NCBI GenBank assembly: GCA_037074765.1
Contig: JBAMDO010000322.1
Span: forward strand, 1-40,247
From: Mansonella perstans
Taxonomy: Eukaryota; Nematoda; Chromadorea; Rhabditida; Onchocercidae
DNA length: 40,247 nt
Direction of reading: 5' to 3'
The position numbers and the translations under genes are program-made. The notes beneath the pieces are model-generated. The model did not search any database. It saw only the letters and a list, made by a program, of their open reading frames with translations, and was not told where the DNA came from. This document shows positions 1 through 39,360 of this stretch, piece by piece. Each line of letters begins with the position of its first letter. Position 1 is the first letter of the stretch.

Positions 1-90
1 AAACTCTCGATTTCTCATACATTCACGATGATTCTTTAGTTGTAGGTTATGGCTTTCAATTTTTCACTGCCAGAAATACTCGAATTTTTC
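1..90 (+). CDS. GTF2H1: GTF2H1 exon a (partial at the window edge)
   Basis: Reading frame 3 (codons from base 3) gives TLDFSYIHDDSLVVGYGFQF, which aligns with LLDLTALEDKPLDEGYG of human p62. The exon ends at base 90 before a consensus donor GTAAGT and leaves one base of a split codon (phase 1). Another frame is also open over bases 46-315 but has no homology here and has a TAG at 43-45. Confidence 0.75.
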
Positions 91-2252
91 GTAAGTAAGG
101 AGTTTTTAATTTCCAAGTTTTGCAAAAACTTAAGATTTCAGAATAGCATATCATCATCGTCGTCATCATGGCAGCATACTTTATCAAAAAAAGACACCTT
201 GATGAAAAGGTTCAATTATCATTCTGAGCGGGTTCTGCTTACTGTTGCTGAAAATGAAGTACCGACCGTTGCAGATTTGGAAGGACAAGTGAATGACGAA
301 GGCACGAAAGTATGATCTTTTTTTTTGAGAACTAGGAAAATGGCTGTTTAAAAATTGATTTAAATTGTTGAGTTTTAATGAGTCTTGGTCTGGTACAAAT
401 GTATGGCTCTTTTTTTGAGAGAGAGAGAGAGGTAATAGGATGTCAACAGTTGAACTTTGTCGTTTAAGCTATCTACTGTTATTAATTTAAATTGTTTGAT
501 CGGTGTGAATTTACATTTGCTAAACCCTTCAAGCGTACTTCCATATTACTTAGTCATTATCAACTCGACTAGCATAAATTTTTTTGCTCGAAACCTCAAC
601 TTATAAACTTGCTTCTTTTCAGATGGACGTGGAGAAACCGAAATCAGGTGAAGAGGATGAAAATGAAATAATATTGGAAAGTGAGGAATTAAGGTCAGAT
701 AAACATGAGGAAGAGTTAGATTTTATTTCATTCACAATTGGTGGTATTGTCAGACCAACAAAACGTTATACGGATGAACAGGCACAAGCTTATCGAGATA
801 CTGTGCTAAGGGTATGCGAAGCTATGGCAGAGAATGAAGACTGTGGTGATGTAAGTTATTAAAATTATTTTGGAAGAGTTGTTTAGAATTCTTTCATGAC
901 ATTCTGATTTTTTCACATTTATCGAGAGTGCTCATTTAATAGTAACTGGTAATTTTGAAAAACTGTTTCATTTTTGCTGCTCTCATTTGCTGAAAATGAT
1001 TGCAGGATTTAGAGGATGATTCGGATAATGACTGTGAAGATCTCATACGATTTGCCACTGCTGGTACACAAACATCTGAGGACATTACATCAGAATTGAG
1101 TGCAACAGATATGGTTGACTTGCAAGCAATCCATGATTCTGTTGCCGAACTACTGAAACATTTCTGGATGTGTTTTCCACCAACGAACCCTGATATGGAT
1201 GATAAAGTAAACTTATTTTGAATTTTTCAGAGTATTCATCTTCATTGTCAGAAACTGTCCCTTTATCATTATTTAAAAGTGTTTTCAGTTAAAAAGAATG
1301 AATGTAACTTTGCGAAATTTTGAAGAAAATAAAATTGCTTCAGCGGAGGAACGATTTGGCGAAAAAAATGTGAGTGAAATTACTACGATATTAGTGAAAT
1401 TTTGATGATAGGTCACATCACTTATATCTGTTTTCAAATTTTAGTCTTTTAATGAATTCAAGCAGTTGACATAAGGTTTTTGAAGACGGTTGTTTGGCTA
1501 TGTTCAGCGATAAGTTGTACCCCACGAAACTTGTTACAGTAAAAGCATCAACACCTGTAATATTCTGGTAGCATTGATAATGCTTAGAAACCTTCTTGAA
1601 AGATCCATTTTGCCACCATCTGCATCTTTTCCAATTAGCCATTTCGTTTGGAGCCTGGAGGGATATATAGTTTAATGAATTATAATAATTCGTTGTAAAA
1701 TTTTTTGAGTATGTTTTGAGAAGTATACTACTGTTCTGTGAATAATAAAATCTGAGATATCAAACTTTTTTGTTTCAGTAATTGTTCTTTTTTAGTATAG
1801 GATAGTATTTTGCGTTCTTTAGATTAGTACATGAAATATACTAGTGGAGTTAGAAAAAGTTATTAAATTAGTTAGGCCTCAAATTTAACCACATATTATT
1901 TTAGTAAAATTTACAATATTTCATTTCAAATTTGGTAATCGAGTTGGCGCAACCAAAAACTTGTCATAATTCTTGCAAATGCTGTTTTAAAGTGTTTTTG
2001 AAATGCATTTTAAAGTGCTACCATTGAAATTACTGTATTAGTTTCGAATTTTACACTTCATTAGCTACTTCATATGAAACAGTTATACTGAATTATATTT
2101 ATACCCTACGGACTATTAGTAATTGATTGGTTATCTTCATCATAATTTTGTTCATTTTTTATCGATTTTATTTTCAGATGAGACGTTGTCGAAGAATGCT
2201 CAATTTTGCTTATACACGTTATGACGCTTATTTGCAGAAGAAGAAGAAGTAG
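1..2252 (+). CDS. GTF2H1: TFIIH p62 subunit (GTF2H1), C-terminal half, 5' end outside window
   Basis: p62 is a core subunit of TFIIH, the nuclear complex that opens promoters for RNA polymerase II and acts in nucleotide excision repair. The exons match the C-terminal half of the family in order: a LDF...DDSL..GYG segment (human LDLTALED...GYG), LMKRFNYHSERVL (human IIKRFNHHSAMVL), a low-similarity acidic stretch, then ELLKHFWMCFPPTNPDMDDK (human [15 protein letters not shown]) and a terminal basic helix ending in four lysines. Proposed exons: <1-90, 194-309 (or from 142), 623-850, 1006-1206, 1289-1369 and 2178-2252, giving about 262 residues, close to the matching part of the 548-residue human protein. 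Introns mostly end in TTTTCAG. The N-terminal PH and first BSD regions lie upstream of the window. The first splice junction is uncertain; the rest is phase 0 throughout. Confidence 0.9.
194..309 (+). CDS. GTF2H1: GTF2H1 exon b
   Basis: This exon encodes LMKRFNYHSERVL, a clear match to IIKRFNHHSAMVL in p62. It ends before donor GTATGA at 310. The best-looking acceptor is TTTCAG at 136-141, but joining it to exon a gives an immediate TAG. The only AG that keeps the frame is at 192-193, and its pyrimidine tract is poor. Either the weak site is used, or there is an indel or a cryptic micro-exon. Confidence 0.7.
623..850 (+). CDS. GTF2H1: GTF2H1 exon c
   Basis: The exon lies between acceptor CTTTTCAG (615-622) and donor GTAAGT (851), phase 0 at both ends, 76 codons. 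The first half is Glu/Asp-rich and poorly conserved. The second half (FTIGGIVRPTKRYTDEQAQA) sits where human p62 has LKKSDRYYHGPTP. Confidence 0.85.
1006..1206 (+). CDS. GTF2H1: GTF2H1 exon d
   Basis: The exon lies between acceptor TTGCAG and donor GTAAAC, phase 0, 67 codons. It carries the most conserved C-terminal block of p62, LQAIHDSVAELLKHFWMCFP, matching [20 protein letters not shown] in human. Confidence 0.92.
1289..1369 (+). CDS. GTF2H1: GTF2H1 exon e
   Basis: The exon has 27 codons between acceptor GTTTTCAG and donor GTGAGT. LKRMNVTLRNFEENKIASAE follows the human pattern [20 protein letters not shown]. Confidence 0.88.
1418..1642 (-). other. unassigned 74-codon antisense ORF inside the last GTF2H1 intron
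   Basis: This minus-strand ORF from ATG to stop begins MANWKRCRWWQNGSFKKVSK. It is less AT-rich than the intron around it. It holds two clustered Trp and several Cys and Lys. I do not recognise a family. It could be a remnant of a mobile element or retrocopy, a nested gene, or chance. Confidence 0.2.
2178..2252 (+). CDS. GTF2H1: GTF2H1 terminal exon with stop
   Basis: Acceptor ATTTTCAG precedes 24 codons and a TAG stop at 2250-2252. The peptide MRRCRRMLNFAYTRYDAYLQ followed by four lysines matches the human ending ([20 protein letters not shown]). The preceding 808-nt intron is the longest of this gene in the window. Confidence 0.88.
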   Translation: MRRCRRMLNFAYTRYDAYLQKKKK

Positions 2253-9652: not shown

Positions 9653-10066
9653 GCGAATATAATAATATTTAAAATTAATTAGCAATTAATCAATTAGTAT
9701 TTTAATGCGACATAGATTTGCCTCAATCATTTTAATAGAAACTTTTTAATTGATAACATAAACATTCATCTATTTAATCTAATTTTATGCTTATTATTCA
9801 TAACACGCGTAATTGTCTCAATTCTATTTTATGCAATATTATATAGTATTAAGCAAAAATACAAGAAATGAAATAATTCTTTTTAAAATTAAAAAAGAAA
9901 TAAAAAAGAAAATAAATATTTAAATGATTTGTTTAAATGAAGCAAAAAAATTAATGGAAAGAAATGCGACATTTGCGCTGCACGTACAACCATATTTTAT
10001 TTGTCATTCATTGATTACGGCGAATAAACATAATATTGCTATGAATAGATGACAGAAGTGTGTGTC

Positions 10067-10070
<4 letters not shown>

Positions 10071-10110
<40 letters not shown>

Positions 10111-10113
10111 TGT

Positions 10114-10172
<59 letters not shown>

Positions 10173-10190
10173 GTGTATGCGTGTATATAT
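10071..10190. repeat. (GT)n microsatellite
   Basis: About 120 bp of nearly pure GT with GGTG interruptions and an ATGTGTAT-containing 3' edge. It creates false Cys/Val and His/Thr ORFs on both strands. Confidence 0.97.
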
Positions 10191-12188
10191 GTGACATTTG
10201 ATAGTGTGTGTATGTGTATGACATTTGGTAAAGATAAGAGTGACATTTTCTAAAGGTAGAGGAAGGAGACTGGCAAAGGCTAATTTGAAATTATGCAAAT
10301 GAAAGAAAAAGCAGTTAGACTAATTGCTTCTTTTCTGTCTTGTTTTCCTTACTTCTTACTGTCTTACCTTTTGTTGTGACAATTTCTTTTTTAACACACT
10401 TTTGGCATCTGTGTGTCATTTAAATTATTCCTGTCTATTTATTTCCCTTTTGTCATCTGTCTCTTATTATCTAAACTCCTATAAACTCATGCACTTATCC
10501 ATGCATGCTCTTATCCATGTATTAAATTAGGCTGACTAAAATCGACTCAAAATTGTCGCATCATTTCAATTTTATTTAAATTTATTATTCATTCAAATGT
10601 TATTTTTTTTTTTTCATTCTTTACTAGATTTATTTGTTTATATTTTCAACTTACTTTTTTTTTTTTTTCACAAACTTGGATGATATGTGGCAATTTGTCG
10701 CATGAAACTGTGCTTATTAATTTAATTTTTAAAATAATCAAAATATTATCAAGAAAAGAAAAACTTTAATCATTAGATATAAATTTAATTGGAATTGAAG
10801 AAATCATTTGATGTGAGAGATTATTGAGTTAGGAATGAAATTAACTTAAAATGCATTTTTCGGGAAATTTTTAGTACTTTTTGCCATAATTTTACCACAT
10901 ATATTCATTATAAAGTTTAATTAATGAAAAAATAAAAGAGCAAAGATCAAAGCTCTAGCAGTACTTAATATTCGCCATCTATGAATAAAATCAAAAAGTA
11001 AAAGAGAAAATGTCGAAATGAAATCAGTAATCAATATCGGATATTTGCTTTTTAAAATTTACTAATTTAAAATTGCAACCATAATAAGTGTTATTTTACG
11101 AAAAAATTTATAAAATTTATGAAAGACAGTGGAAAGCAACATTTTTCATGGCCCATCAAATAATGATACACAATCATATATAAGATTGGAGCAACCAAAA
11201 TTAAATATGATTTGGGAAGAAAGAAATTTAGCAAAGTGATCTTTCACAAAATCCAAGCTATATTACGTATGCATGCATATTAACGAGTAAATCGGTTGAG
11301 AATAGATTTTGGAATAATTATTTTAATTACTTTTAACTATTTTCAACAACAGTAACAATTTAGCAGCTAATAATTAATCATGCAGCTAAAATTTCCATTA
11401 TTTTTTAGAATTTGAATAATAAAACTTTATATTTGAAAATGAAATTAAAATTAGAGTATTTCAGGGAACAACAATATTTCATTATGAAATTTTCAAAAAA
11501 AATTTTCCACGTAATAATAAACAAATTTATTGATATATGTTTTGTATATATAATGAAGTGGAAAATGAAATAAATAAAAGTAAGAAAATTGAAAAATTTC
11601 CGGGAAAATCTCCGGAACAGGAAAATTACTTCATCAACAGAAATACAGTAATCAGTTTTCCTTTTGCGTCCTGTAAACTGGATAAAAAAGAGAAATATGT
11701 TTGGAAAAATTTTTTGTAAAATTTATGGAAAATTTATTCTTATCAGTTTATGAGATTGATTAGAATATTAATTAAATTTAATTAGAACAATTAATTAAAT
11801 TTTTATCCGATGCACTAAATTAAATTTTTAAGGAATAACGAAACAAAGTTTTTAATTACCATTTTATTTTTACACTTATACAATGTTATCACTAATGATT
11901 AAATTAATTTTAAGGAAAAAAGTGATAGATTTGATAGTAATTAATTGGTTGCTGATATTTAACAAGAAGTTACTAAAAGAAACAATTACCGTAAAAAAAA
12001 AGAATGAGAAGGCTTGTAGGGAAGTTTGAGGAGATAAAGGTTACCAACAAAACGAGAAAATTTTTTGGATAATAACTCATTTCCGGTTAAAATAGGCTAA
12101 ACCGGATTTTTCTTTTTTTTTCATATTCAATTTCTCATAGTTTCACATTGAAAGTTCAAATCGATTGAATTCATTCAGCATGAAAGTA

Positions 12189-18465: not shown

Positions 18466-18656
18466 TTAAGGCCAAAAAAGTATCATTAATAATAATAATG
18501 ATAAAAAGAATGGATGAATTGTTATCCGTAAACTACCACCGACTTGTTCTTCATGTTTTATCTTACTATCACCACCACCACCACTATCACCATTATCAGT
18601 TGATGTGCCAGCAGCAGTATCTCTATCATCATCCACAGGTGGTAATAGTTCACCAG
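18466..18656 (-). CDS. integrin-like exon 11: linker end and GPI-type C-terminus
   Basis: 62 codons and a TAA. More acidic linker, a DNGDSGGGGDS segment (S467-G468 could carry a glycosaminoglycan), then VGGSLRITIHPFF and a Leu/Ile/Phe-rich end finishing WP. No basic stop-transfer or cytoplasmic residues follow the hydrophobic stretch. Confidence 0.88.
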
Positions 18657-21600
18657 CTATAAAAAAAAAAAAAAGATTTAATGAAAATTTTCCAACACTC
18701 AAAAATTATCCATTTATCATTTAAAAAATCTCAATTTTTTAAAATTTTTATACCTTAAGTTTGATAATTTCAATCTTCAAATTGCTAACAATTTCATTTG
18801 ATTATTGAGATTTTTTCTTTCAAAAAAAAGTTTTTAATTGATTATCAAAATTGATTTCTTTTATTTTTAACTGATAATTGAGATTTTTTTCAGATGTATA
18901 AATAATTTAAAAATCAATACAATATTGGAATAGAAATAAAAATAAAAATTGAAATTATATTTATACCTTCTTGAGCATCATGTCCTTCTGTTGCTTCAAC
19001 ATATTCTACTGCATCTTCAGCTTTAACTTTATCTTCCGTCATTTCGCCGAAATCTTCCCGTTGAGGATCATCCTTACTACTTGTGGTGTGATCTTTTGCT
19101 TCGATTGATTCAGACATTTCATCATCTGAAGCCTCATTTTCAGCCACAACTCCACAGGTTAAACCTGTGTAACCTTCATGACAAACACATTTTCCACATT
19201 CACATCTACCATGTCCATTGCAAATTTTCTGAAAAAAATAAATAAACAAATAAACAAGCAAACGACACTGAAAAAAAACTAACATCAATAAATTAATGAT
19301 GGTGTTAATAAATTTAAAATAAACTAAAATTTTTGAAAAAAAACTCCACAATCAACAAAATTAAGATTATTTATTCAGTTCAAATGATATAAAAAAATAA
19401 ATAAATAGAAAACTTAATTACTTAATTATTTGATGCAAGTAAAATAAAAGATAATTATGTTAAAAATAGAATTTGAAATTTGTCTGTCTTCAAAAATGTA
19501 AAAAAATGAATAAAAAAAAAGAATCAAAAAAAAGAAATGAGTCAAAAAATTATATGAACCAAAAAAAAGTGTATCAAAATATGAATCAAAAAAAATATGA
19601 ATAAAGAATATCAATAAAAAAAAATGAATATAAATGAATCAAAAAATTATATGAATCAAAAAAAACAAAAAAAATATGAATCTGAGGAAATGAATATAAA
19701 TGAATCGAAATATGAATTAAAAAAAAATTATACGGAACAAAAAAAAAAACTTTTTATATAAATAAAAGAAAAACTTTGTTCACTTTAAAACTTACTCCGC
19801 TTTCTAGGCATGGTGAAGTATCAAGAGCACATGAGCAATCTTCACCTGTATAACCTTCTTCACAATAACATTTGCCGCATTTGCATTCACCTTGGCCTGC
19901 ACACATTCGATCTTTTGAAGTTGGACATGATAAATTTTCGCATTCACAATAGTTTCCACGAACCTACAATACAAATCTTCATCCATAAATCTATCGATAA
20001 ATGTCTTAAAAAAAAAACAAACAAATTTCCTTATCTTTCTCTTCATTACTATGGCGTTAAAATTATTCTACGTTTACTTGGATACAAAAAAAGAGAAAAA
20101 ATTAGTTATATTTTAATGTTATGGCACATTTCATTATGGATAAGAACGATGAATTTTACAGGATTTCAACTAGGTTTTTACAACTACGTTTTCAACTACA
20201 AGAAAGTCAATTTTCACGTTCCCTACTAACAATAAAATCAATTTTCACGTTCCTTACACTTCTTATTAGTTCTGCACGGGAAAAGTTTAATCAATTTTTA
20301 CATTTCTCACAAACGAGAAAGTCAATTTTCACGTTCCTTGCTTGTGAGATGCAACGGAAAATCTGATTGGGTGATGTAGAGGTAGTGTATGGGTTTTTCT
20401 GTGATATTTTCTCTCCTTCTCGGACACTGATTCTATACGAGTAATTTTAGCACATTATGAATTGTGTATTTTCATGACCGCTGATTCAGATGTTAGAGTG
20501 GATCATTTGTGATAGTTATTCAACTGAGGTTAAAAGATAAGATAATTTATAGAATCTTTATATCATCATGTTTATGTTGATTTTCACTTTAGCCTATAGC
20601 GTGTGAAGAATTATTGTGTATTCGTTCCATGTTGATTTCCACTTTCATATATAACGTATGGAATTACTTACATTTTCTTTCATGATAACTTTTATTTTGA
20701 CGTAATGCATATAGAATTATTACGTATAGAATTATTTCCCTTCACCTTTACCTTTTCCTTTATTATATTTTCAGTATTTTTCTAATATTTGACAGAATTT
20801 CGAGATTTTTATTACGGTAGAAATTGAATGAAGGTATTACGGTGAAAATTGAATGAACGGAAATTGAAATTAAAATAATAAAAAACAAACTTACGTGTTC
20901 AACATTGCAAACACAGCTACCACACCTACATTCACCATTACCACTACAAATTAAATCTTTCGGTGTTCTGCAAAAAGACAAACATATTTTAATTTCAATT
21001 TTAATATACTATGATCAGAATATCTCTATCGTTATCGGAATAAACCAAACAAATCACTCCACCAACTAAGAACGACCATGCAGCACCAATCACCGAATTA
21101 TGAAAGAGCTCTCAATCTGTCAATCCTTACGATGTCGGGCGTGAGTTTTCCCGTGTTGAGTCAAATTATGCCCAGGATCTACTGAGACAAATTAACAATT
21201 AATTTTACAGTTCGAATTTTTCTTTTTTTTTGAATATGAAATGTTAACATTGCAGTGATAATTATGTGATTGTATTCTTTTTCTTTTTTTTTAAACTTCA
21301 ATTTTAAATTAAAAGCTTATTTTGGTAAAGAATTTTTGAATGCATACTTTCGACATTTATTTTCTAACTCTTGAGCTGATGAGACGCCATGTTTTTTCAA
21401 ATCACATTCACAGTGATTCCCACCTTTACCTGGTTGACATTCACAGACACCACAAATTAAATCACCTGCTCCATGACATAATGACGATGCTTTCTCCTAG
21501 AAAATAAATTTGCTTTAATTAATCATAAAGCTAAATTTTATTGTAATATTCCATCCCTTAAATATTAAGTACCATTTTTCAATATATTTCAAGTAATATA

Positions 21601-24600
21601 ATATTTTTATATCAATATATTTAATTGGATGTTATTTGCTTTTATGTTTTTAATCAGTACTTATCTTGACAATTTAATTCATTCATTATTGAAAATTTTA
21701 GGATAATTGCTTCATTATATACCTCAGATAGATATAGATCATGAGAAAGATTAACCGTCAGATTATTTTGATCTAAATTATCATTGTCACCTGATTTTGC
21801 ACTTTTTCACATTCACAACCACAAGATGGTGTAATATACATGGCGGAAACAGTTTGATAACCATACGCGCCAATTGAAATTGCAATATCGCCACCTGATT
21901 TGCACTCATTCAATGATACTTTAGCAAAAAATTCAATTTTTTCACCTAATGCAACGTTTGGGCATTGGCGACCTTGTACTCGCTTTCTGCAAAAAATATT
22001 TTGTACAATTTTTTTTTCGTTGAAATTTGAAAAATTTTAAATCAAATCCGTAATTTGAAAAAAAACCAAACAAAACGAATCGATAAATAAGTATAATTCC
22101 ATTTTGAATAAAATGAATGGTAGAATTCATAATTAATTAAAACTCAAAGAGCAACAAAAGGAATAAAATTTAGCAATATCTCATATGGATCTATTAAGTT
22201 GCACGTTTAAATTAAACTGATAATTTTAAATTATTTATTATAATTTGCTATAAAGCTCAAATTTTAGCAACTATGAAATTGATTTTTAATTTTAAAACTT
22301 TATTTTAAATTACTTACTATAATTTGTTATAAAGATCAAATTTAGGAACCATAACATTAATTCTTAATTTTAAAATTTTATTATTAAATTATTACAAATT
22401 ACTTGGTTATCAAAATAGATTTTGATTATTAAATTGCATAATTTTCTTATATAAATTTGATTAATAAATTTAAACATTGATTATTTTAAATTTCAAAAAC
22501 TTTGTTTTGCTTTTTATATTAAATCTACTAAAAAATTTGGTTTTGGATTTTTTAATTATTTAAATTTTGAAACTTGATAATAATTTAAAAAAGACAAACC
22601 CGCCACAATTAATGGAAAAGTCAATGCCAACACCCAATGATCGAAATTCGCTAGTCTGTATGACGAAATCACGTATATTTGTTTGCTGTGGATTATGCAA
22701 ATATTTAAATGGTACTTCCAGGATATCACCTGAAAAACACCACAAATTTAATGGTAAATGATGAAATATATAGTTGGGAAAAAGAAGTGAATGAAAGTAA
22801 AGAAAATTTAGTGCAAAAGAAAAAATTTTAGTTTTTTAAGCTTTTTTCAATTTAATCTATTGAATGAAATACATTTCACACAGTATATGCAGTATAAAAT
22901 GCTTTTCATACAGTAAGTGCCATTTAAGAATTCCCTAATCACAATCATCATTATCATCGTCACTTAAATGCAGGTGATCATGATCATTTTAATGTGACAA
23001 ATTAATAAGTGAGAATTCCGTATCATTTTTTTTCCTAAGAATTTTACACAGTCCAATTTTTTTGAGATTTCAATGAAATGCTTGCTTGATTTTTGTAAAA
23101 TGAAAATTTCGGATAAAGTATTGAAATAAATGAGTTTAATGAAAACTTCAGAAAGTACTGTGTGTTTTGGAATGAAATGAGAGATGAAAGTAACATGACA
23201 ATCTAAAAAAAGAAACGAAAGGCTTGATGGTTTTGTGTTTTGGGATGAGATAAGCGATGAAAGAAAATGTGATAATCTCAAAAAAAAAACGTGAAACGTG
23301 ATAGTTTAACAAAAAAAAAGGAACCTATAGAAATATTTCATTTTAAATGGTTTGCACAATTTATGAAAAAGAGGAGCGAAAAAATGGCGTAAAAACATAT
23401 ATTACGTCATTGTAAAGTAGTTGTGAATAAAGATATTGCAAATGAATATATCAGCAAAATGTTTCAAAACGGTAAAATTGTCCCTAAAAAATTTTTTATA
23501 TTATGTAGGAGAGTAAGTGATTATATTATAATAATTAACAAATTAACATGTTGTAGGGTGATTAAGTGATAAAAGTTAACAAAATAACATATATAAAGTG
23601 ATTAAGTGATCATGGTGTTAATAAAACAAGCATGTAAGTGATAGTAATTAACAAACTAACATGTGAGCGACAATAATCAACAAATATATAGTGACAATAA
23701 TTAACAAACTAGCATATAGGTGGCAATAATTAACAAACTAACATAAAGGTGACAATAATTAACAAACTAACATTTAAATGACAATAATTAACAAACTAAC
23801 ATATTTTGGACGTTAGTTTGCAACTATTATTAAATATTCGTTAATTATGATTGCTAATCAAGTGTTTTTTAATTATTATTAATTTTTATTAAGTGATAAT
23901 AATTTACATATTAACATGAAATCGTAAAAAATAGAAAATTTCTCTTTTTGTTAAATTACTTACTAGGAAATATCACACTTTTTGTTTGCTTGTAAGTAAA
24001 AATTTTCAAACAAATCGGAAAGGGAAAGAAAAAAGAAAAACGAAGTAATAGTGTAAATGATACTTTTTGTTTGATAAATAAAGGAAAAAAAGAGAAAAAT
24101 AGTGAAAATTAATAATCGGTTAAAAGGAAAAAAAGAAAGTTATAAAAATATATTTTTTTGTTTCAATTTTCCCATTCTTCTGAATATTTTTACTTTTTTT
24201 TTAAAACACATCAATAAAAATACTGTTGGTTAAAATAAATCATCAGGCTATCAGTTATGTTATTTTGTTTTATGGTGTTTTGTTGATTTTTTTTTTTTTT
24301 TTAAAGCTTTCAGTGCTGTTTATCATTATTATTTTTTAACTAAACATGCTTTTTGTTTTTGCTCCTTATTGTTAAGAATTACTTCGTCTTAATTATTTTA
24401 AATTTAATTATTCGAGTTTAATTTTTGTTAGGGAATGCATTTTTCAGTTTTTGTTTTTTCTTTTTTCTGCTTTAAATTTACTAATATTTACTACAGTAAT
24501 TAGCTCATTTCAAATTTAATTTTTGCATTATCTAGTTTTCATTTTTTTTAATTTGCTAACACATACAGTGATTCAATCATTTTTAATTTAATTATTCAAA

Positions 24601-27250
24601 TTTGATTTTTGTTAAAAAAACGTTAAAAAAAAGTGTTTTTCGGTTTTTGCTTTTCTTAAAAAAAATTTCACTAGAGTAATTAGTGCATTTCAAATTTAAT
24701 TTCTGCATTTTTCAGTTTCCGCTTTTTTTAAATTTATTAATACATATAGTAATTTATTCAAATTTAATTTCTGTCGAAAAATGCATTTTTGATTTTTTTT
24801 CTTTTCTTAATTACTTTTTTAATTAGTGCTATTTACGATATTTGTTGTAATTTACTTCAAATTACTATTATTATTGATGATTGAATGGGGGAGAAGATTT
24901 TAAAAGCTGCTTTTATAAAACAAAGCGTTCACAGAGACTAAAACAGTGAAGAGGATTTATTATTAATTGCTGTGTTAATGCATAATGCTGTTGTTTTTAT
25001 TTGAATTTAAATTGTAAAGTTTGGTGTATAGTAAGAAAAAAGAGAAACCGAAAAAAAAAGAAAAAAGAAGCAGGAAGAACGAAACCAAATATTCGGAAAT
25101 TCAATGTTTGCACTTTTTTTTGCATAATTTTATAACTTGCGAAATTTTTGAACTTTGAAAAGCAAATTCTCATTAATAAAATATTGCCAAATTTTAAATT
25201 TCTAAACGAATTCTAATTAAAAATATCAAACCTCAAAATTTTTAAATTTTTTTAAAATTTCAAAATTTTAAACTTCCAAATAAAATTCTCATTAAAAGTA
25301 TTCCATTTCAAAAATTTATCAAATCATCATTTCAACAAATAATCAAAAAATTCATTTTATTATCTGAGCACTGAAATAATAACTGAGGAATTCCGAGACT
25401 TTGTCCTGTAATTGCTGATAATAAGGAAGGAACGAAAAAAAAATTTAAACTTGAAATTATGAATTCTAATCACTTAATAGTTTGAGTTCAATTAAGTTAA
25501 TTAACACTTTATAATAGGATCAATATATTTGGTAAATATTTAAAAGTTCATTATGTTGTCCTTTTTTTTTAAAAAAAGATTCCCAAAAATGAAATTAAAT
25601 GGTTTTGATAATTCAAGTATTTTAATTAATGTGTTTCTTAGTCCAATTTAAAGCATTTTACTTATTTGGTAGCATTTTTCTTGCTTTCTTTTTTTACTAT
25701 TTCATAAAGATGAACGGATTTGAGTTTGAAGCGAAAGCAAGCATTATTCGAATAGAATTAGATAATTTTAATTGTCTAAATAAAATTAATATAATCACAA
25801 TTACCAGGTTTCATCCTCAGTATAACTTGTTGTGGTTCAAGTTGTACAATCGTTGAACCATCTGCTTGTTTACTTCCTAATGGTAAATTCTGCAAATAAA
25901 AATTACTTGTAATATTGCCGTTGTTGTTTGTTTGTTATTTGTTATTGTTTTTGTTGTCGTTTGTTTGTTGTTGTTTGTTTGTTTGTTTCTTTTGAAATTA
26001 AAATTTCCCAAGAAATGAAATTAAATACTTATAATATTCAAAAAAAAAGAAAAAATGAAACATTACATTTTGTGGTATCATTCGAATTTCTGTCTTTGGT
26101 GAATAGATAAGCGATGGATTACATTTGCCTTGAAATTCACTCTTCAAATCACATCTTGATGGGCCTACCAAATGCTGTAAAATTTCAAAAAAAAGAAATT
26201 GCAAAATGAGATAATTAAAATTATAATATTTATTACATGCAACACTTATACTCAACATTTCGTTGAAGTTAGTTTCCTCTTTTTTTTTCTTGAAACTTTT
26301 TTTTATAATTTAAATTTTACACTACCTTATTCATTCAATACTACCTTATTGAAAAACAAAATTTGAATGAATAAATGATTTTAGAAGAAATATGATGAGA
26401 TTAATTATCTAATTAATTAATTAGTAAAAGTTAAATTAATTTACTAGCTCATCATATTTCCTAATTCAAGTGTTTAAAGATAATTTAAAATTTTCTCCAC
26501 AATTTCCATCCCTTTTTTAAGTAATTAATTTTTAAATGGATAATTAATTTTTTGATTGAATTTAAACATTACATTACGAAAAAAAAATTTCTTCCTATAT
26601 TCATTACTAACTTCTTTATCATGCACCATGCAAATAATTTAATTTTTACATGGAATTAATTAAAACAAAAAATACGAGCATAAAAAAAATTAAATTAAAA
26701 ATTTATTCTTCAAGAATTTGAAAATTCACAAAAGAATTTATCCAAAAATTAAATTCATCATGTCAACCAAATAATGTCATGTGAGCAAATTAAAAAATAA
26801 TTATAGAACTTTTTTTTGAAATTTTCATTTTTATCACTCAAAACTAATTGATAAAAGATAATTTATGAATTTCATAATTATCCCGGACTAAAAATATTTA
26901 AAGAAAAAATGACTAATGATAAATAATAATTGCAATGAAAAAAATTTGCGAACCGGATCAAGACACCATGCACATTCCGGATGTTGTTTGATGCACTGGC
27001 CACAACTTCTACTACCCAATATATTGGTACATAAATTTCTGATATCCTTTGCAATTACTATAAAAAATTGGTAATTAGATTTTTACTCAAACAAAATTCA
27101 TTATATCATATTAATTGATTGAACAATATCAGTATTAATATTTCAATAATTTAAAATTTGAAATAGAATTTGAAAATTTTTTCAAAAAGATTTCATACCA
27201 TTAACAACAATGATGAATGATGCAAGCAATGCGTACATGTAATACTTCAT
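18466..27250 (-). CDS. integrin beta-like protein lacking the beta-I domain, predicted GPI-anchored, 505 aa
   Basis: Eleven exons join in phase from ATG at 27250 to TAA at 18466. Residues 1-17: hydrophobic signal sequence. 27-70: PSI domain with all seven cysteines (27, 36, 39, 46, 49, 60, 70) and the CAWC motif. About 105-225: hybrid domain, with EPQQVILRMKPG matching the SPQKVTLYLRPG strand of beta subunits, then C158, C168 and C188. 215-256, 273-307, 312-344 and 351-380: four I-EGF modules (CxCGxCxC cores). 381-481: acidic Ser/Thr-rich linker. 482-505: GGS, short spacer and hydrophobic end without a cytoplasmic tail, typical of a GPI signal. No beta-I/MIDAS, beta-tail, transmembrane helix or NPxY tail is present. 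A nematode integrin beta-like or ITGBL1-like relative is the closest idea I have. Role unknown; likely extracellular adhesion or matrix. Confidence 0.9.
18967..19228 (-). CDS. integrin-like exon 10: I-EGF4 and acidic linker
   Basis: ICNGHGRCECGKCVCHEGYT ends in CG instead of the usual CxxC, so module 4 has seven cysteines rather than eight. It is followed directly by an Asp/Glu/Ser/Thr-rich linker (EASDDEMSESIEAKDHTTSS onward). Canonical beta subunits have a cysteine-rich beta-tail here. Acceptor TTTTTTTCAG, donor GTATAA. Confidence 0.93.
19229..19795 (-). repeat. integrin-like intron 9 with ATGAATCAAAAAA-type repeats
   Basis: 567-nt intron. Between about 19480 and 19735 the plus strand repeats TATGAATCAAAAAA and AATGAATATAAATGAATC with drift. 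No exon is seen inside. Confidence 0.6.
19796..19963 (-). CDS. integrin-like exon 9: end of I-EGF2 and I-EGF3
   Basis: 56 codons, phase 0 at both ends. CECENLSC closes module 2 and opens module 3. CAGQGECKCGKCYCEEGYTG is the module 3 core. N309-L-S is the one N-glycosylation sequon noticed. Confidence 0.94.
19964..20894 (-). other. integrin-like intron 8
   Basis: 931-nt intron containing three copies of CAATTTTCACGTTCC (20208-20222, 20239-20253, 20323-20337) and a less AT-rich stretch at about 20370-20740 with repeated ATAGAATTATTACGTA-like words. The ORFs through it have no homology I recognise. Confidence 0.6.
20895..20967 (-). CDS. integrin-like exon 8: I-EGF2 core
   Basis: 24 codons between acceptor TTTTTGCAG and donor GTAAGT. 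LICSGNGECRCGSCVCNVEH matches EICSNNGECVCGQCVC of beta1. Confidence 0.94.
21016..21180 (-). pseudogene. 18S rRNA fragment inserted in integrin-like intron 7
   Basis: On the minus strand the bases read TAATTTGACTCAACACGGGA, AGGATTGACAGATTGAGAGC, CGTTCTTAGTTGGTGGAGTG and TTATTCCGATAACGA in this order. These are universal landmarks of the 3' major domain of eukaryotic 18S rRNA. About 165 nt of the roughly 1.8-kb gene is present. Differences at conserved sites (GCATGGTCG for GCATGGCCG, a changed CGGTGATTGGTGCTGC) and shortening around the ACTCACGCCCGAC stretch mark it as a decayed copy, not a functional gene. It lies in the same orientation as the host gene. Confidence 0.9.
21348..21496 (-). CDS. 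integrin-like exon 7: I-EGF1
   Basis: 49 codons and two bases. LCHGAGDLICGVCECQPGKG followed by CEC is the I-EGF1 core. KKHGVSSAQELENKCRK leads into I-EGF2, as SEDMDAYCRK does in beta1. Acceptor TTTTCTAG, donor GTATGC. Confidence 0.94.
21791..21986 (-). CDS. integrin-like exon 6: second half of the hybrid domain
   Basis: KRVQGRQCPNVALGEKIEFF matches GRKCSNISIGDEVQFEISI of beta1. It ends in PSCGCECEKVQNQ, the C-x-C-x-C entry to I-EGF1. Acceptor ATTTTTTGCAG, donor GTGACA. Confidence 0.94.
22600..22729 (-). CDS. integrin-like exon 5: both sides of the missing beta-I insertion
   Basis: This exon starts in the first hybrid half (GDILEVPFKYLHNP, compare GQAAAFNVTFRRAKGYP) and ends in the second (SLGVGIDFSINCGG, compare the EGVTISYKSYCKNG of beta1). 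Only about 20 residues separate them, where about 240 residues of beta-I domain are expected. Acceptor TGTTTTTCAG, donor GTTTGT, phases 1 and 2 matching the neighbours. Confidence 0.92.
22730..25804 (-). other. integrin-like intron 4 (3,075 nt)
   Basis: This is the longest intron, placed just before the exon where the beta-I domain is missing. I looked for beta-I landmarks (DLSxSM MIDAS loop, the GGFDA and disulfide loops) in the visible ORFs and found none. The longest ORF (22964-23281, minus, 105 codons) has no integrin character. It contains a minisatellite at 23529-23820 and long poly-T/poly-A runs. Confidence 0.7.
23529..23820. repeat. minisatellite, unit about 34 bp, with an inverted end
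   Basis: Eight or so copies of GTGACAATAATTAACAAACT followed by AACAT. The last copy is followed by GTTAGTTTG (23812-23820), the exact reverse complement of CAAACTAAC (23792-23800), giving a 9-bp stem with an 11-nt loop. Confidence 0.8.
25805..25889 (-). CDS. integrin-like exon 4: first hybrid-domain strands
   Basis: 28 codons plus one base. It encodes VQLEPQQVILRMKPG, the conserved strand before the point where normal beta subunits enter the beta-I domain. Acceptor TTATTTGCAG, donor GTAATT. Confidence 0.92.
26067..26174 (-). CDS. integrin-like exon 3: end of PSI
   Basis: 36 codons, phase 0 at both ends, acceptor ATTTTACAG, donor GTAATG. RCDLKSEFQGKCNPSLIYSP aligns with the [21 protein letters not shown] region of beta3 and holds PSI cysteines six and seven. 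Confidence 0.92.
26954..27057 (-). CDS. integrin-like exon 2: PSI domain
   Basis: It starts after TTTTTTATAG and supplies LCTN...SCGQC...CAWCLDP, the first five PSI cysteines and the WC pair. The donor is GTTCGC, far from consensus, yet the join gives the expected WCLDP/HLVGPSRCDLK, close to human beta3 WCSDEAL..PRCDLK. Confidence 0.88.
27199..27250 (-). CDS. integrin-like exon 1: start codon and signal peptide
   Basis: ATG begins 40 nt after a TTTTTTACAG acceptor. MKYYMYALLASFIIVVN is a short signal sequence. The exon ends before donor GTATGA in phase 1. Confidence 0.85.
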
Positions 27251-33900: not shown

Positions 33901-36030
33901 ATACACTAATTGCATAATATTTTTACAAAATACTATTTAAATTGTTGAAATTGTCGAAAACAGAAAAAAAGTTATGAATAAAAAGGATTTTTCAAGTTTT
34001 TTAATTATTAATTTTTATTTATTACTAATTTGGAAAAATTAAATTTTGTATACCTTTATTAATTAAATATTAGTTTTCATTTTAATACATAATTTGCTAA
34101 TTTTTCAAAGGATAAATTATTTATTTCATAATTTATCAAACGAAAAATACCTATTTATAAATATTTTTATTAATTATTTATTAATTGTTATGCACCTTTT
34201 ATCAATTAAATATTAATTTTCATTTCAATTATACAATTGTTGTTAAAGAATTCTATCAATGAATCATTTATTTTAATTCATTCATATTTCATTTTTAAAC
34301 ATTTTTTTTAATTTTGAAATGAAAAAGAAAAAGAGAAAAATATGCACACAGTGTTACATAGACAGAGAAAAAGAGAGAGAAGGAGAAAACAAAGTATTTA
34401 TAAAGAAAAACTTGTTGCACTTTTCAAAATTTTTGTTTAAGAAATTTAAGCTCATTTTCTTTTCCACATTGAAAATTAAAGTATTTCTTGCTAAAGTTTT
34501 GTTTATGAATAAGTTTAATCCTAAATACATTCTGCACTGATCCATTCCTATAATTTACTGTTATCATTGGGGAAAATTATCGAAAAAAAAAAAAGAAAAA
34601 ACACCCTGGAAATGATATTATTAATTCTAATAACGAAAGAAAGAAAAAAAAGCAAACAGAGAGAGTAAGAAATGAAGATTATGGAGGGAATTTGAATTTT
34701 TTTTTGTTTTTTTTACAATAATTTTTAAAAATAAATTTGAAAATTCATTTTTTTATTGATTTTTGTAATTTCAGAAATTTATAAAAATATGCATAAAACT
34801 TTGGAAAAAAGAATGAAATGATATAGAAAAGCAGTCAGCAGCAGATGGAATATGTAGTTGCCTTTTTTTAGGACAAATGACGAATAAGTGAGCATTTCTC
34901 TCTCACAGTGAGAAACTCAGAGAAGTTTAAATGATCATATTAGAATTGTTTTTTTTCAGTTCACTTTGATATATAATTTAAGCTTCATTTTTTCATCTTT
35001 ACTGACAAAAGGTCCAAAAAAAAGAAAAAAAAAAACGGAAATAAAAACTGATACATCATCATACAAATTATTCATCCATCTGTTTGTTCTCCTCGCATCA
35101 TCTAAACAGTCAAAAATGAACTAGGCTTAAAAGTAATTTGCCTTCTAAACAATAAGGCTGACCTAAATTCTCTCTCAAACTTTCAGATTTGCGAAACAGC
35201 ACAGGCAATTTATGGTTGAATTACATGATGTTGAAATTTTTAAAATTGTGAGATTTTCGTCATGCAAAAATAAGGACGGATAAATTTGAATGAAGGGACA
35301 ATTTTGAAGCAAAAAACTGCGATGTTTACAAAAAAATTAAAAAAAAAAATCATGTTGACCTTTATTTTTAATTTCGGTTTTCATTTTTTTGATATTCGAG
35401 TATTATTAATTAAATAACTAATTTGGTATTTTTAACGTAAAAAAAAATCTCTTTGTCAAATGCTGTGACTAATCGTAATTGAAGAAGCAAAAAAAATCGT
35501 TTTTTTTTTTTTTTTTAGTACAAAAAAGAAATTTCTAGCATGTCAATCTACAATAGTCTTTACTAGACTTTCTTTTTTTGCAGTAAGTTGCTAAATTATT
35601 AGAACAATAAGATTTAAAAATTAAAGCTCACGTTCTATAAAATTTTCATAGAACATAGGATCAAATTTACTGATTGCGAATTTTCAATCGTTCGTATCAG
35701 AAGAAAGTATCAGATCTGTTTGGAAGTTTGTCATGCAAATATCTTTAAGGCTAGCTGAGAGAGGACTGCGAAGTACAAAATGTGAAAATTTACGCTTGAA
35801 CCTGAACGTAGAAAATGTAGCAAAGTTAGAATATTCTTTTGACAAAAATGTTTTTTAAAATATTCTGTTGCATGCAAATTGCCGTATAACTAAATTTAAT
35901 TTCTATGCTTAGCGCATTGCAAGAAAACTGCAAGGAATATTTCAAGATCTTTTCAAAAAAAAAAATCCTGAAAATACATTTGATTACAAATAAATTCAAG
36001 TGATAAAATTTCAGAAGGCTCTTAAAGAAA

Positions 36031-36100
36031 ACACACCACACACACCACACACACACACACACATACACACACACCACACACACGCACACACACACACACA
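36031..36100. repeat. (CA)n microsatellite
   Basis: About 70 bp of CA with CCACA, CATA and CGCA interruptions. Confidence 0.95.
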
Positions 36101-36743
36101 GATTAAAATTAACCGGAAAATGTTAAAATCCTTGTTGCAGTATTCCATTCTTTAGATTTCAAACATTAAGCTGAAATTAAGTATTGAAATAATATCTGTT
36201 AATTTTGTTAATGTTAATTTAAAAAATTTAATGTTAATATTATTATTGATAAAAATGAAAAAGTAAAGGAAAAAAAATGATATAAATTAATTAATGAAAT
36301 TAACAGTTGTTTTTCGGAAATATAGGATATTTGAAGATGGTAAGATGAATAAAGTAATCGATTGTTTTAGGGAAAAGGATTTGATGATGGATAAAATGAG
36401 CGACTAACTTTTTGTAATAGCTAAATGAATTGTTAGAAAGTTTAAAAGCAATGTAACAAAGAGAAAAGTTAACATAAAGAGAGAGAGACGGAGAGAGAGA
36501 GTGAAGAGAGGGAGAAAGAGAGAAAGGATAAGAGTAAATGATCAAGGTCAAGGCAAATGGTTAATGCTGCAAATACTCCATTCCTTTCTTCCTACAAACT
36601 TCTTCCAGTTGTTGAACTAAACTAAACTATCCACCTACCTATATATCCATCCATCCACTACATCTCAATTCCATCCTTACCAAATCCACACATTCATTCT
36701 TGCAAGCATCTGCTCGAAAATCTTTACTTGTACTGCAACTGTT

Positions 36744-36823
36744 CCACACACATACATACATACACACACATACACATACACACACATACACACACGCACA
36801 CATATATATATATATATATATAC
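36744..36823. repeat. compound (CA)n-(TA)n microsatellite
   Basis: CA/CATA repeats up to about 36802 pass directly into a pure TA run. Confidence 0.95.
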
Positions 36824-39360
36824 ACCAGTAAATAACTCTAAAGTTTGAAGCATAAACGAGCAAAGGGAGAGAGATATTCACTTTGCCAAAAAACATTCAA
36901 CAAAAGAAAAAACGGAAAAAAAAAGAACAAGGAACCGGAAAAAAAAAAAGGACATTTCATACAAAAAAAAACTCTTATTATTGTAACCATAAATTGAAAA
37001 GAAAGTTAAATGCTTTCTTTGCTTAAGATAATAAGTTGTTTTTTTTTTTTTTGTTTTTGTAAGATTATTTGAAAAGTGAAAAGAATGTTAAACAATAATA
37101 GAGTAAAAAAAAAGAAAAAAAATTGTATAACAAATATAAATTTAGCACAAATTTTTTTTTTTTTTTTGTTTTTATTACTCTTAACAAATATGCATGCAAA
37201 TAGGCAAATACATGAATTTTTTTTTTTTTTTAGTAGTAACAAATAAAACTCTAGAGTTAAATAACGACAAAATAAATTACATTAATCTTTTAATACAATA
37301 GAAAAGCCTCACTTGCTTTCATAAAGCACTAAGTAGCTAAAATTGTTTTTAACTAATTACATCTAATGTAGGAAATATCAGTAATAAATTTACAAAAAAA
37401 ACAAAAAAAAAAAAAAAAAATTGCTTTTTTTTCATAAAACACTTTTTTAATGCTTTTTTTTCTTTTAAATTGCGGTAATTAATCTGTTGTCTGGAAAAAT
37501 TATCACAATTGTTTTTAAAATTATTATAATTAATCGATGTCTACTATTGAATTAGAAAGTTACTAGAAGGGATTTTTCAGTGTGTAATATGAAATTCAAA
37601 AAAAAATAATACGCTAAAATGTTTCAATCAGCATTGCTGATGAGTGAATTTAATTATTCTTAATTACTTACATATGGTTCAGCAACAACTTCTTTATTTG
37701 TGGTCAAAGAAAAAAGGAGCAAGATGAAACAACGATCAATAAAACCGTGAAAAGTTGATATAAGTGTATTAGCAAATGTCAGATAGTGATAACAAAGCAA
37801 CTGATAAGATTTATCTGAATGGAACTTACATTTGTTCCAAATTGTTGTAATTTATTTTTCAATTTCAAATTTTTAAATTTTCTGATAAAATTTCTAATAA
37901 ATTTCCTTAGAACAAAAAACAAACAAACAAAAAAAATTCTAAAATTAAATTGAAATTGAAATTAGGGCTAATAATTTTTCAATCAAATAAATATTCGATG
38001 TTAGCTAGTCTTTAAAAATAAATATGAAATAAAACAGTAAATGAGGAATGGGGCAAGAAAAAAACCGGACAGAGAAAACCGGAAAGAAAAAAAGGAATAG
38101 GAGAAAAGAAACTCAAGAGGAAACAAAACCAAACAAAAACCAAACTGGAGAGGAAACAGGAAACGATTTCGGAGAGAGAATTAAATGAATAAGGTTTTTT
38201 GCCTAATTTTTTTTTTATCATCATATCAATATGTGATGCTGTCATCAGTTATATGAGTTGTAAAAGAAGAAAATAATATTTTTCTGTTATTTAGGCTATC
38301 AAAAATAATTTCGAATATCAATTCTATTCATTTCAAATATTAAGTAAAAGTTAATCGGTTTTATTTTGTATTAACCGGATTATTGTCATACTTGCGCTTC
38401 GTGCTATACTTTATATGACATTTTCCATTTATTTTACAATTCCTACGGCGAGTAAAAAAATGAAAAACTTTTATCTTTTATATCGTCAAAAAAAAGCTTT
38501 TTTTTGTTTACTATCAAGCTCAAATATTAATTTTTACTATTTCAAGTATTAGTTTTTCCATTTTAAAGACAAATTTTTTCATTTGAAATATTGATTTTTT
38601 ATTTCAAATATTAATATAAATTATTTAGCAGTTTCTACAGCATGTCAAAGAGAAAAAGCTGTAAGTTTTTTTTTGTCGAATATTAATTAATTTCGATGGT
38701 TTGCTTTAAATTCAAATTCACACTGATACGAAATTAATTTTGATAAAAATGAATATTCACCACAATTCCTTAGGCTTAATTTTAAATTTAAATTAATATG
38801 TAATATATCAATTTTTTCATTATTTAATTTGAAGGTTCTATTTTTTGATTTAGCAAAACTTAACAACAAAATATTAACCATTTTTTTGTTTCGATTATTT
38901 CCACTATCGATCAATTTCATTTCTTCGTAAAAATTTTTTTTCAACCAAGATCACTTCAGAAATATTCGGCGATGTTCTATTTGCTATACTCAACACAAGC
39001 AAAATCAAATCATTTAATTTAATATTGTTCGGAATTTTCTTCAATTAAAGCATGAGAGAAATTTTACACTTGTCACAATAAAAATGATTAGGATATAATT
39101 TACATAGTTCTTGACAAGGCTAATACGTGGAGACACAATGGAGATTTGACTCATGGACTTCTCCAAACCACTCAAACAAGTATGTAATTGTTAGTTTCCA
39201 GAAAAAAAAAGGAATTAGGGGACAATGTGCATTTACCGTAACCGCTTGATAAAAGTCAAAGAAAAAAACGGAAACTGATGATTCAAAAGTTTCTCGAGTT
39301 GATGCTCACTGTTATATATACAATTATTATTGCTTCATCTGAAAACATATGACACTAAAA

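What the first reader, a model, noticed from the sequence alone, without database searches (positions are those of the whole stretch)
22600..22729. Integrin beta-like protein whose hybrid domain is not interrupted by a beta-I domain
Seen: PSI, hybrid and four I-EGF modules follow in normal order, with all exon phases compatible. One 130-nt exon holds both hybrid halves (ILEVPFKY and GVGIDFSINC) with about 20 residues between them. Known: in all canonical integrin beta subunits the roughly 240-residue beta-I domain is inserted exactly here; it carries MIDAS, binds ligand and contacts the alpha propeller. Inference: either this lineage lost the insertion cleanly, or it preserves an uninterrupted hybrid fold. 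It should neither bind ligand by MIDAS nor pair with alpha subunits in the usual way.
Basis: partly seen in the sequence, partly recalled or inferred. Interest (0 to 1): 0.88.

Follow-up and report, generated by a model that had tools for sequence, protein, structure and literature searches.

The report
Headless integrin beta of roundworms
Roundworms carry a relative of the cell-adhesion receptor integrin that has no ligand-binding head domain (likely lost from an ordinary integrin gene); it is predicted to be tethered to the cell surface by a lipid anchor and likely tunes the real integrins rather than gripping matrix itself.

Summary
An 11-exon minus-strand gene (27250-18466) encodes 505 aa: signal peptide, PSI, uninterrupted hybrid, four I-EGF modules, acidic stalk, hydrophobic C-terminus. 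Exon 5 (22600-22729) joins both hybrid halves. No beta-I exon was found in the 3,075-nt intron; the same genome has a PAT-3-like beta subunit with beta-I on another contig. Of 332 proteins examined, 307 have both hybrid halves: 64 spaced under 60 residues (52 nematode-type, window included), 243 at 133 or more. The 20 nematode rows put in a tree form one clade reaching Trichuris. Six of eight shared-region introns match PAT-3's in phase within 5 columns (a seventh by eye), including both that flank the junction, so the gene is likely a PAT-3 duplicate that lost beta-I from inside exons. The modelled B. malayi ortholog superposes on the beta-3 hybrid at 1.5 Å. Published ortholog data: B. malayi peptides only after PI-PLC; C. 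elegans C05D9.3::GFP on muscle membrane, with an RNAi mark. Likely a GPI-anchored, ligand-blind modulator of PAT-3 integrins; that mechanism is inferred. Some teleost, mollusc and moth records also lack beta-I; one origin for all is rejected.

The parts
27199..27250 (-). exon 1: start codon and signal peptide
   Evidence: gene model
26954..27057 (-). exon 2: end of signal peptide and first part of PSI domain
   Evidence: PSI aligned to integrin beta-3
26067..26174 (-). exon 3: rest of PSI and linker
   Evidence: intron phases match own PAT-3
25805..25889 (-). exon 4: start of hybrid domain, first half (VQLEPQQVILRMKP)
22730..25804 (-). intron 4 (3,075 nt): no beta-I coding exon found
   Evidence: no N
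22600..22729 (-). exon 5: last strand of hybrid half 1 joined to the first strands of hybrid half 2
22668..22697 (-). about ten-residue loop (window residues 128-137) that takes the place of the beta-I domain
   Evidence: loop by DSSP on the model of the B. malayi ortholog, which has the same residue numbering there
21791..21986 (-). exon 6: rest of hybrid half 2 up to CGCECE
21348..21496 (-). exon 7: I-EGF1
   Evidence: Pfam I-EGF_1
20895..20967 (-). exon 8: I-EGF2
   Evidence: Pfam EGF_integrin
19796..19963 (-). exon 9: end of I-EGF2, I-EGF3, start of I-EGF4
18967..19228 (-). exon 10: rest of I-EGF4 and acidic stalk
   Evidence: 31% D+E over 102 stalk residues
18466..18656 (-). exon 11: end of stalk, C-terminal hydrophobic segment, stop
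18469..18513 (-). C-terminal hydrophobic segment, GPI-signal-like, nothing cytoplasmic after it
   Evidence: hydropathy

Best explanation
The gene encodes a nematode-wide integrin beta-like protein with PSI, an uninterrupted hybrid domain and four I-EGF modules but no beta-I domain, beta-tail or cytoplasmic tail; it is predicted to sit on the cell surface on a GPI anchor and likely modulates the real PAT-3 integrins instead of binding matrix itself. Shown by sequence: the architecture, the joined hybrid, the absence of beta-I here and its presence in a PAT-3-like gene of the same genome. Reported for orthologs by others: recovery only after PI-PLC in B. malayi (4 peptides) and GFP on the muscle membrane in C. 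elegans. Inferred: that a PAT-3-like gene duplicated before crown Nematoda and lost beta-I by a deletion running from inside one exon to inside another. Inferred and untested: that the headless leg acts in cis on PAT-3 heterodimers, for example by competing for leg-to-leg contacts, as secreted ITGBL1 inhibits integrins in vertebrates. My confidence by step: architecture about 0.97, GPI anchor about 0.9, loss from a PAT-3-like gene about 0.85, integrin modulation about 0.4.
Against: No direct evidence of contact with PAT-3 or any alpha subunit. The C05D9.3 GFP pattern is 'cell membrane' (category 7), not the dense-body, M-line and attachment-site pattern described for PAT-3 (category 2), which fits a separate role as well. 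The RNAi study behind the mark found most of its new genes in a MYO-3::GFP strain with muscle defects of its own, and pat-3 RNAi itself gave no highly penetrant disorganised-filament phenotype there (PMC2694363, passages); I saw only the table mark for C05D9.3, not the scored data. 16 of 52 nematode rows lack a GPI-like end; several are visibly partial models, but not all were checked. The C. elegans protein was in none of the lists returned (lists of 14 and 38 capped at 120); its membership rests on the Brugia paper and on four Caenorhabditis relatives. That P0001 is Bm1972 is likely from name and species, not shown.
Confidence: 0.5

Rival explanations
1. Same architecture, but the protein works independently of integrins, as a GPI-anchored spacer or adhesion protein with its own partner at the muscle or other cell surface.
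For: C05D9.3::GFP sits in the general membrane category rather than the PAT-3-like category. A PSI-hybrid-EGF rod on a long acidic stalk would suit a spacer.
Against: The RNAi mark is for muscle, where PAT-3 adhesion acts; the ITGBL1 precedent acts through integrins.
Confidence: 0.4
2. The protein keeps an ancestral uninterrupted hybrid from before the beta-I domain was inserted into integrin beta.
For: The predicted fold is complete without beta-I, and shared flanking introns fit an insertion as well as a deletion.
Against: Outside nematodes the lists of three searches (two of them capped) show joined halves only in mollusc, teleost and moth records; holding the nematode clade with own PAT-3 gives a likelihood 9.4 higher than the free quick tree, p-AU 0.72, which does not prove that clade; beta-I is present in the cnidarian row used as outgroup (P0197). 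The unrooted tree alone cannot decide it.
Confidence: 0.05
3. Artefact: a missed beta-I exon, an assembly gap or a wrong splice model.
For: No transcript of this species was seen; splice sites are modelled and two donors are weak.
Against: No N and no beta-I signal in the intron; the junction is inside one exon; 51 other nematode-type rows have the same join, among them four unnamed records on contigs of 1.6-1.7 kb that likely are transcripts; B. malayi peptides exist.
Confidence: 0.02

Closest known systems
Canonical integrin beta subunits (PAT-3, beta-1, beta-3)
   Same: PSI, hybrid, I-EGF1-4 in the same order; most intron positions and phases shared with the genome's own PAT-3-like gene
   Different: No beta-I/MIDAS, no beta-tail, no transmembrane helix plus NPxY tail; GPI-type end instead
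C. elegans C05D9.3 / B. malayi Bm1972a
   Same: Same family; called orthologs and listed as GPI-anchored proteins with PI-PLC proteomics (PMC6742230)
   Different: Described there only as 'EGF-like domain containing protein'; no word on a missing beta-I domain in the section and passages read ('integrin' does not occur in that main text)
ITGBL1 (TIED) of vertebrates
   Same: Integrin-beta-like EGF repeats, no beta-I, reported to inhibit integrin activity (PMC8921176)
   Different: Secreted; the swan record P0322 lists only EGF families and the hybrid profiles found no pair of halves in it
PSI/hybrid/I-EGF fragments of integrin beta-2 in the PDB (2p26, 5e6w, 5e6v)
   Same: Single continuous match to window residues 33-303, 33-343 and 28-255: the same PSI-hybrid-EGF join in a solved structure
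   Different: Fragments of beta-2 solved in the laboratory; here the join is natural
Teleost, abalone/chiton and moth 'integrin beta-like' records without PF00362 (13 records)
   Same: Hybrid halves joined without beta-I (12 by profile; chiton P0124 by eye)
   Different: Beta-tail model PF07965 listed for 10 of 13; by the same numbers 12 of 13 lack a GPI-like end; all headless rows taken together are rejected as one clade

Membership tests
Integrin beta subunit | beta-I (VWA-like) domain with MIDAS inserted in the hybrid domain | tested here: not met
   PF00362 absent; joined halves; no exon in intron 4
Integrin beta subunit | hybrid domain | tested here: met
Integrin beta subunit | PSI domain | tested here: met
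   aligned to beta-3 PSI within a stretch of i-E 6.5e-13; structure rows from residue 22. Pfam PF17205 did not pass for the window protein but is listed for some relatives
Integrin beta subunit | four I-EGF modules | tested here: met
   Pfam EGF_integrin 4 stretches, I-EGF_1
Integrin beta subunit | beta-tail domain, transmembrane helix and cytoplasmic tail with NPxY | tested here: not met
   no such Pfam hit; own-genome PF08725 only on C534; NPxY 0 of 52 nematode rows (last 120 residues) against 172 of 243 canonical rows (last 60)
Integrin beta subunit | heterodimer with an alpha subunit | not testable with these tools
   needs biochemistry
ITGBL1 (TIED) | made of I-EGF repeats only (recalled) | tested here: not met
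   PSI and hybrid present
GPI-anchored protein | C-terminal hydrophobic segment with no cytoplasmic tail | tested here: met
   residues 491-505; one residue after the best 13-residue window. No GPI predictor was run here
GPI-anchored protein | release by PI-PLC | not tested
   published for the B. malayi ortholog (PMC6742230), not for this species

The most novel reading that the evidence does not exclude
Headless integrin beta subunits are a recurrent animal invention: once, anciently, in nematodes (GPI-anchored), and separately in molluscs, several teleosts and a moth (mostly predicted secreted), forming a class of ligand-blind proteins that regulate real integrins through the beta leg alone.
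Probability: 0.35. Interest if true: 0.78.

Novelty: new variant of a known kind. Interest (0 to 1): 0.62.

Why it matters
If true, nematodes keep a natural integrin beta 'leg' without its head, conserved from Trichuris to filariae. It shows that a domain inserted into another can be taken out cleanly in evolution, and offers a genetic system (C. elegans C05D9.3 beside pat-3) to ask whether the beta leg alone can regulate integrins. UniRef names several of these proteins 'Integrin beta subunit VWA domain-containing', after the very domain that is missing.

Tried and rejected
An alternative beta-I exon in intron 4: rejected by the genome-wide PF00362 search and by a profile from 220 canonical beta-I stretches with a positive control. 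A single origin of all headless proteins: rejected, p-AU 2e-11, on the 29 headless rows put in the tree; nematode plus mollusc together is not rejected (p-AU 0.81, likelihood 16 higher than the free quick tree), so the number of origins is not settled. A first spacing count used a second-half profile that reached into beta-I and gave canonical spacings near 105; it was redone with the right edge and only one search is used for counts. A motif count for MIDAS used different patterns for the two groups and is not used. A reading that the junction is a new conserved hot spot: the loop itself is the least conserved part of the folded region (mean top-residue frequency 0.49 against 0.57-0.70), the strand after it is ordinary (0.67). 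Paper searches that bear on a published description of a beta subunit without beta-I; none was seen in the listings (one search returned nothing, a phrase search, returned only lycopene papers). The other searches looked for ITGBL1 and for the beta-2 fragments. The library holds open-licence papers only, so this is not proof of absence.

Full report
Observation. The finding's exon is where it was said to be. On the minus strand an 11-exon chain with AG/GT borders and fitting phases runs from the start codon at 27250 to the stop ending at 18466 and gives 505 residues. Exon 5 is 22600-22729, 130 nt. It carries DILEVPFKYLHNPQQTNIRDFVIQTSEFRSLGVGIDFSINCG, that is, the last strand of the first hybrid half and the first strands of the second. 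The window has no N. No transcript of this species was seen, and the donors after exons 2 and 5 are weak GT sites.

Domains. Pfam gives EGF_integrin (four stretches), I-EGF_1 and other EGF models, and no Integrin_beta (PF00362), beta-tail or cytoplasmic-tail model; PSI_integrin does not pass for this protein. phmmer against solved structures matches integrin beta chains: a beta-3 chain (6bxj) in two stretches, window residues 25-119 and 150-381, and the beta-2 fragments 2p26, 5e6w and 5e6v in a single stretch. The 280-residue 2p26 chain is aligned over numbers 1 to 519, so it lacks the beta-I residues; how it was made is recalled, not read.

Own genome. PF00362 rings only on contig C534, six exon pieces; the integrin cytoplasmic tail model also only there; the window protein finds its own exons and two EGF pieces on C534. 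These searches score only the best candidates, so counts are lower bounds; within that limit the assembly has one canonical beta and one headless gene. A beta-I profile from 220 canonical proteins gives nothing in intron 4 (best E 2.5) or elsewhere in the window (best E 8.1), against seven hits at 2.3e-22 to 6.2e-6 in the C534 locus.

Introns. I modelled the shared region of the C534 gene from homology and GT/AG borders, without transcripts; the 5' border of its exon that ends beta-I is approximate. Of the eight window introns in that region (introns 2-9), six match a PAT-3 intron in phase within 5 columns (offsets 0, 2, 0, 2, 0, 5). A seventh of the same phase lies 39 columns off in the alignment because of an insertion in the Trichuris row, 4-5 residues by eye; the script's rule did not count it. 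The eighth has no partner, and PAT-3 has one I-EGF intron that the window lacks. The two introns that flank the junction are KP(G) phase 1 and CG(G) phase 2 in the window, RP(K) phase 1 and CL(D) phase 2 in PAT-3. In PAT-3 the beta-I edges lie inside the exons that border those introns. Exon 5 therefore looks like the head of one PAT-3 exon fused to the tail of another, with everything between gone. This fits a deletion; by itself it would also fit an insertion in the other direction.

Family. Three database searches listed 331 different proteins (best 120 of 162; 107; best 120 of 337); with the window, 332. Profiles of the two hybrid halves found both in 307; 25 lacked a recognised half, among them chiton P0124, whose joined hybrid is seen by eye. 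Spacing splits cleanly: 64 below 60 residues, 243 at 133 or more. The 64 are 52 nematode-type rows (47 named nematodes, 4 unnamed records that resemble them, the window), 4 abalone, 7 teleost and 1 moth row. Named nematodes include filariae, Ascaris, Strongyloides, Pristionchus, Caenorhabditis, Plectus and Trichuris. A quick maximum-likelihood tree was made of 68 chosen rows (20 of 52 nematode, 5 of 7 teleost, 2 of 4 abalone, the chiton, the moth, 38 of 243 canonical, own PAT-3), with the stretch between the halves removed. My group labels there are loose: 'fish_canon' and 'invert_canon' include a few other vertebrates. The 20 nematode rows form one clade (SH-aLRT 99), Trichuris and one unnamed row near its base. 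Holding this clade together with own PAT-3 is not rejected and gives a likelihood 9.4 higher than the free tree (p-AU 0.72), which does not prove it; all headless rows as one clade is rejected (p-AU 2e-11); nematode plus mollusc is not (p-AU 0.81). Deep branches are weak and two rows are long.

C-terminus. Window residues 491-505 are hydrophobic, with one residue after the best 13-residue window. By a simple hydropathy rule 36 of 52 nematode rows end GPI-like; 0 of 52 carry NPxY in the last 120 residues, 172 of 243 canonical rows carry it in the last 60. No GPI predictor was run.

Published data on orthologs. PMC6742230 (section 19 in full, other passages): Bm1972a, 'ortholog of C. elegans C05D9.3; EGF-like domain containing protein', 4 unique peptides, only in the PI-PLC-treated membrane sample, recognised by 2 GPI prediction programs, and ortholog of a protein identified in the C. 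elegans GPI study of Murata et al. 2012 (that paper not held, not read). That P0001 is Bm1972 is likely from name and species, not shown. PMC3096668 (passages): C05D9.3 in category 7, cell membrane, marked for an RNAi phenotype in Meissner et al. 2009. PMC2694363, that study (passages): C05D9.3 is not in its main text; most new genes came from a MYO-3::GFP strain with early muscle decline, and pat-3 RNAi gave no highly penetrant disorganised-filament phenotype. PMC8921176 (abstract and introduction): ITGBL1 is secreted and inhibits integrin activity.

Mechanism. Without beta-I there is no MIDAS and none of the main contact to the alpha propeller (integrin structure, recalled). Without a cytoplasmic tail there is no talin or kindlin link (recalled). 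What is left is a beta leg on an acidic, likely flexible stalk, likely held by GPI. The muscle-membrane location and RNAi mark, and ITGBL1's action, make a cis effect on PAT-3 integrins my choice; an integrin-independent adhesion role is about as likely.

Novelty. The proteins are in databases under names such as 'EGF-like domain', 'Integrin beta subunit VWA domain-containing' and 'INB domain-containing'. No listing from the six paper searches that bear on it describes an integrin beta without beta-I in nematodes. I rate it a new variant of a known kind.

Noticed in passing
P0226, P0234, P0238, P0241, P0257, P0279, P0311: Seven teleost 'integrin beta-1-like' records join the hybrid halves without beta-I; P0226 is about 90% identical to canonical P0239 of the same fish in the shared parts, P0257 96% to Takifugu P0263 in its second part and 73% in its first. 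Recent paralogs or gene-model errors are both possible.
   Followed up: partly
P0077, P0121, P0122, P0123 (Haliotis), P0124 (chiton): Mollusc integrin-beta-like proteins with PSI-like start, joined hybrid, I-EGFs and mostly a beta-tail model, no C-terminal membrane segment by hydropathy; predicted secreted.
   Followed up: partly
P0079, Leguminivora glycinivorella: A moth 'integrin beta-PS-like' record without beta-I; branches with insect canonical beta-PS. May be a missed exon.
   Followed up: partly
names: Several headless nematode records are named 'Integrin beta subunit VWA domain-containing' or 'INB domain-containing', apparently after the domain they lack.
   Followed up: no
window 1-1760: Several open frames of 89-113 aa (for example 578-859 +) at the left edge; not identified, may belong to another gene.
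   Followed up: no
window 10011-10319, 35829-36122 and 36621-36896: Stretches that read as His-Thr, Val-Cys or Tyr-Thr repeats, as CA/TG microsatellites do.
   Followed up: no
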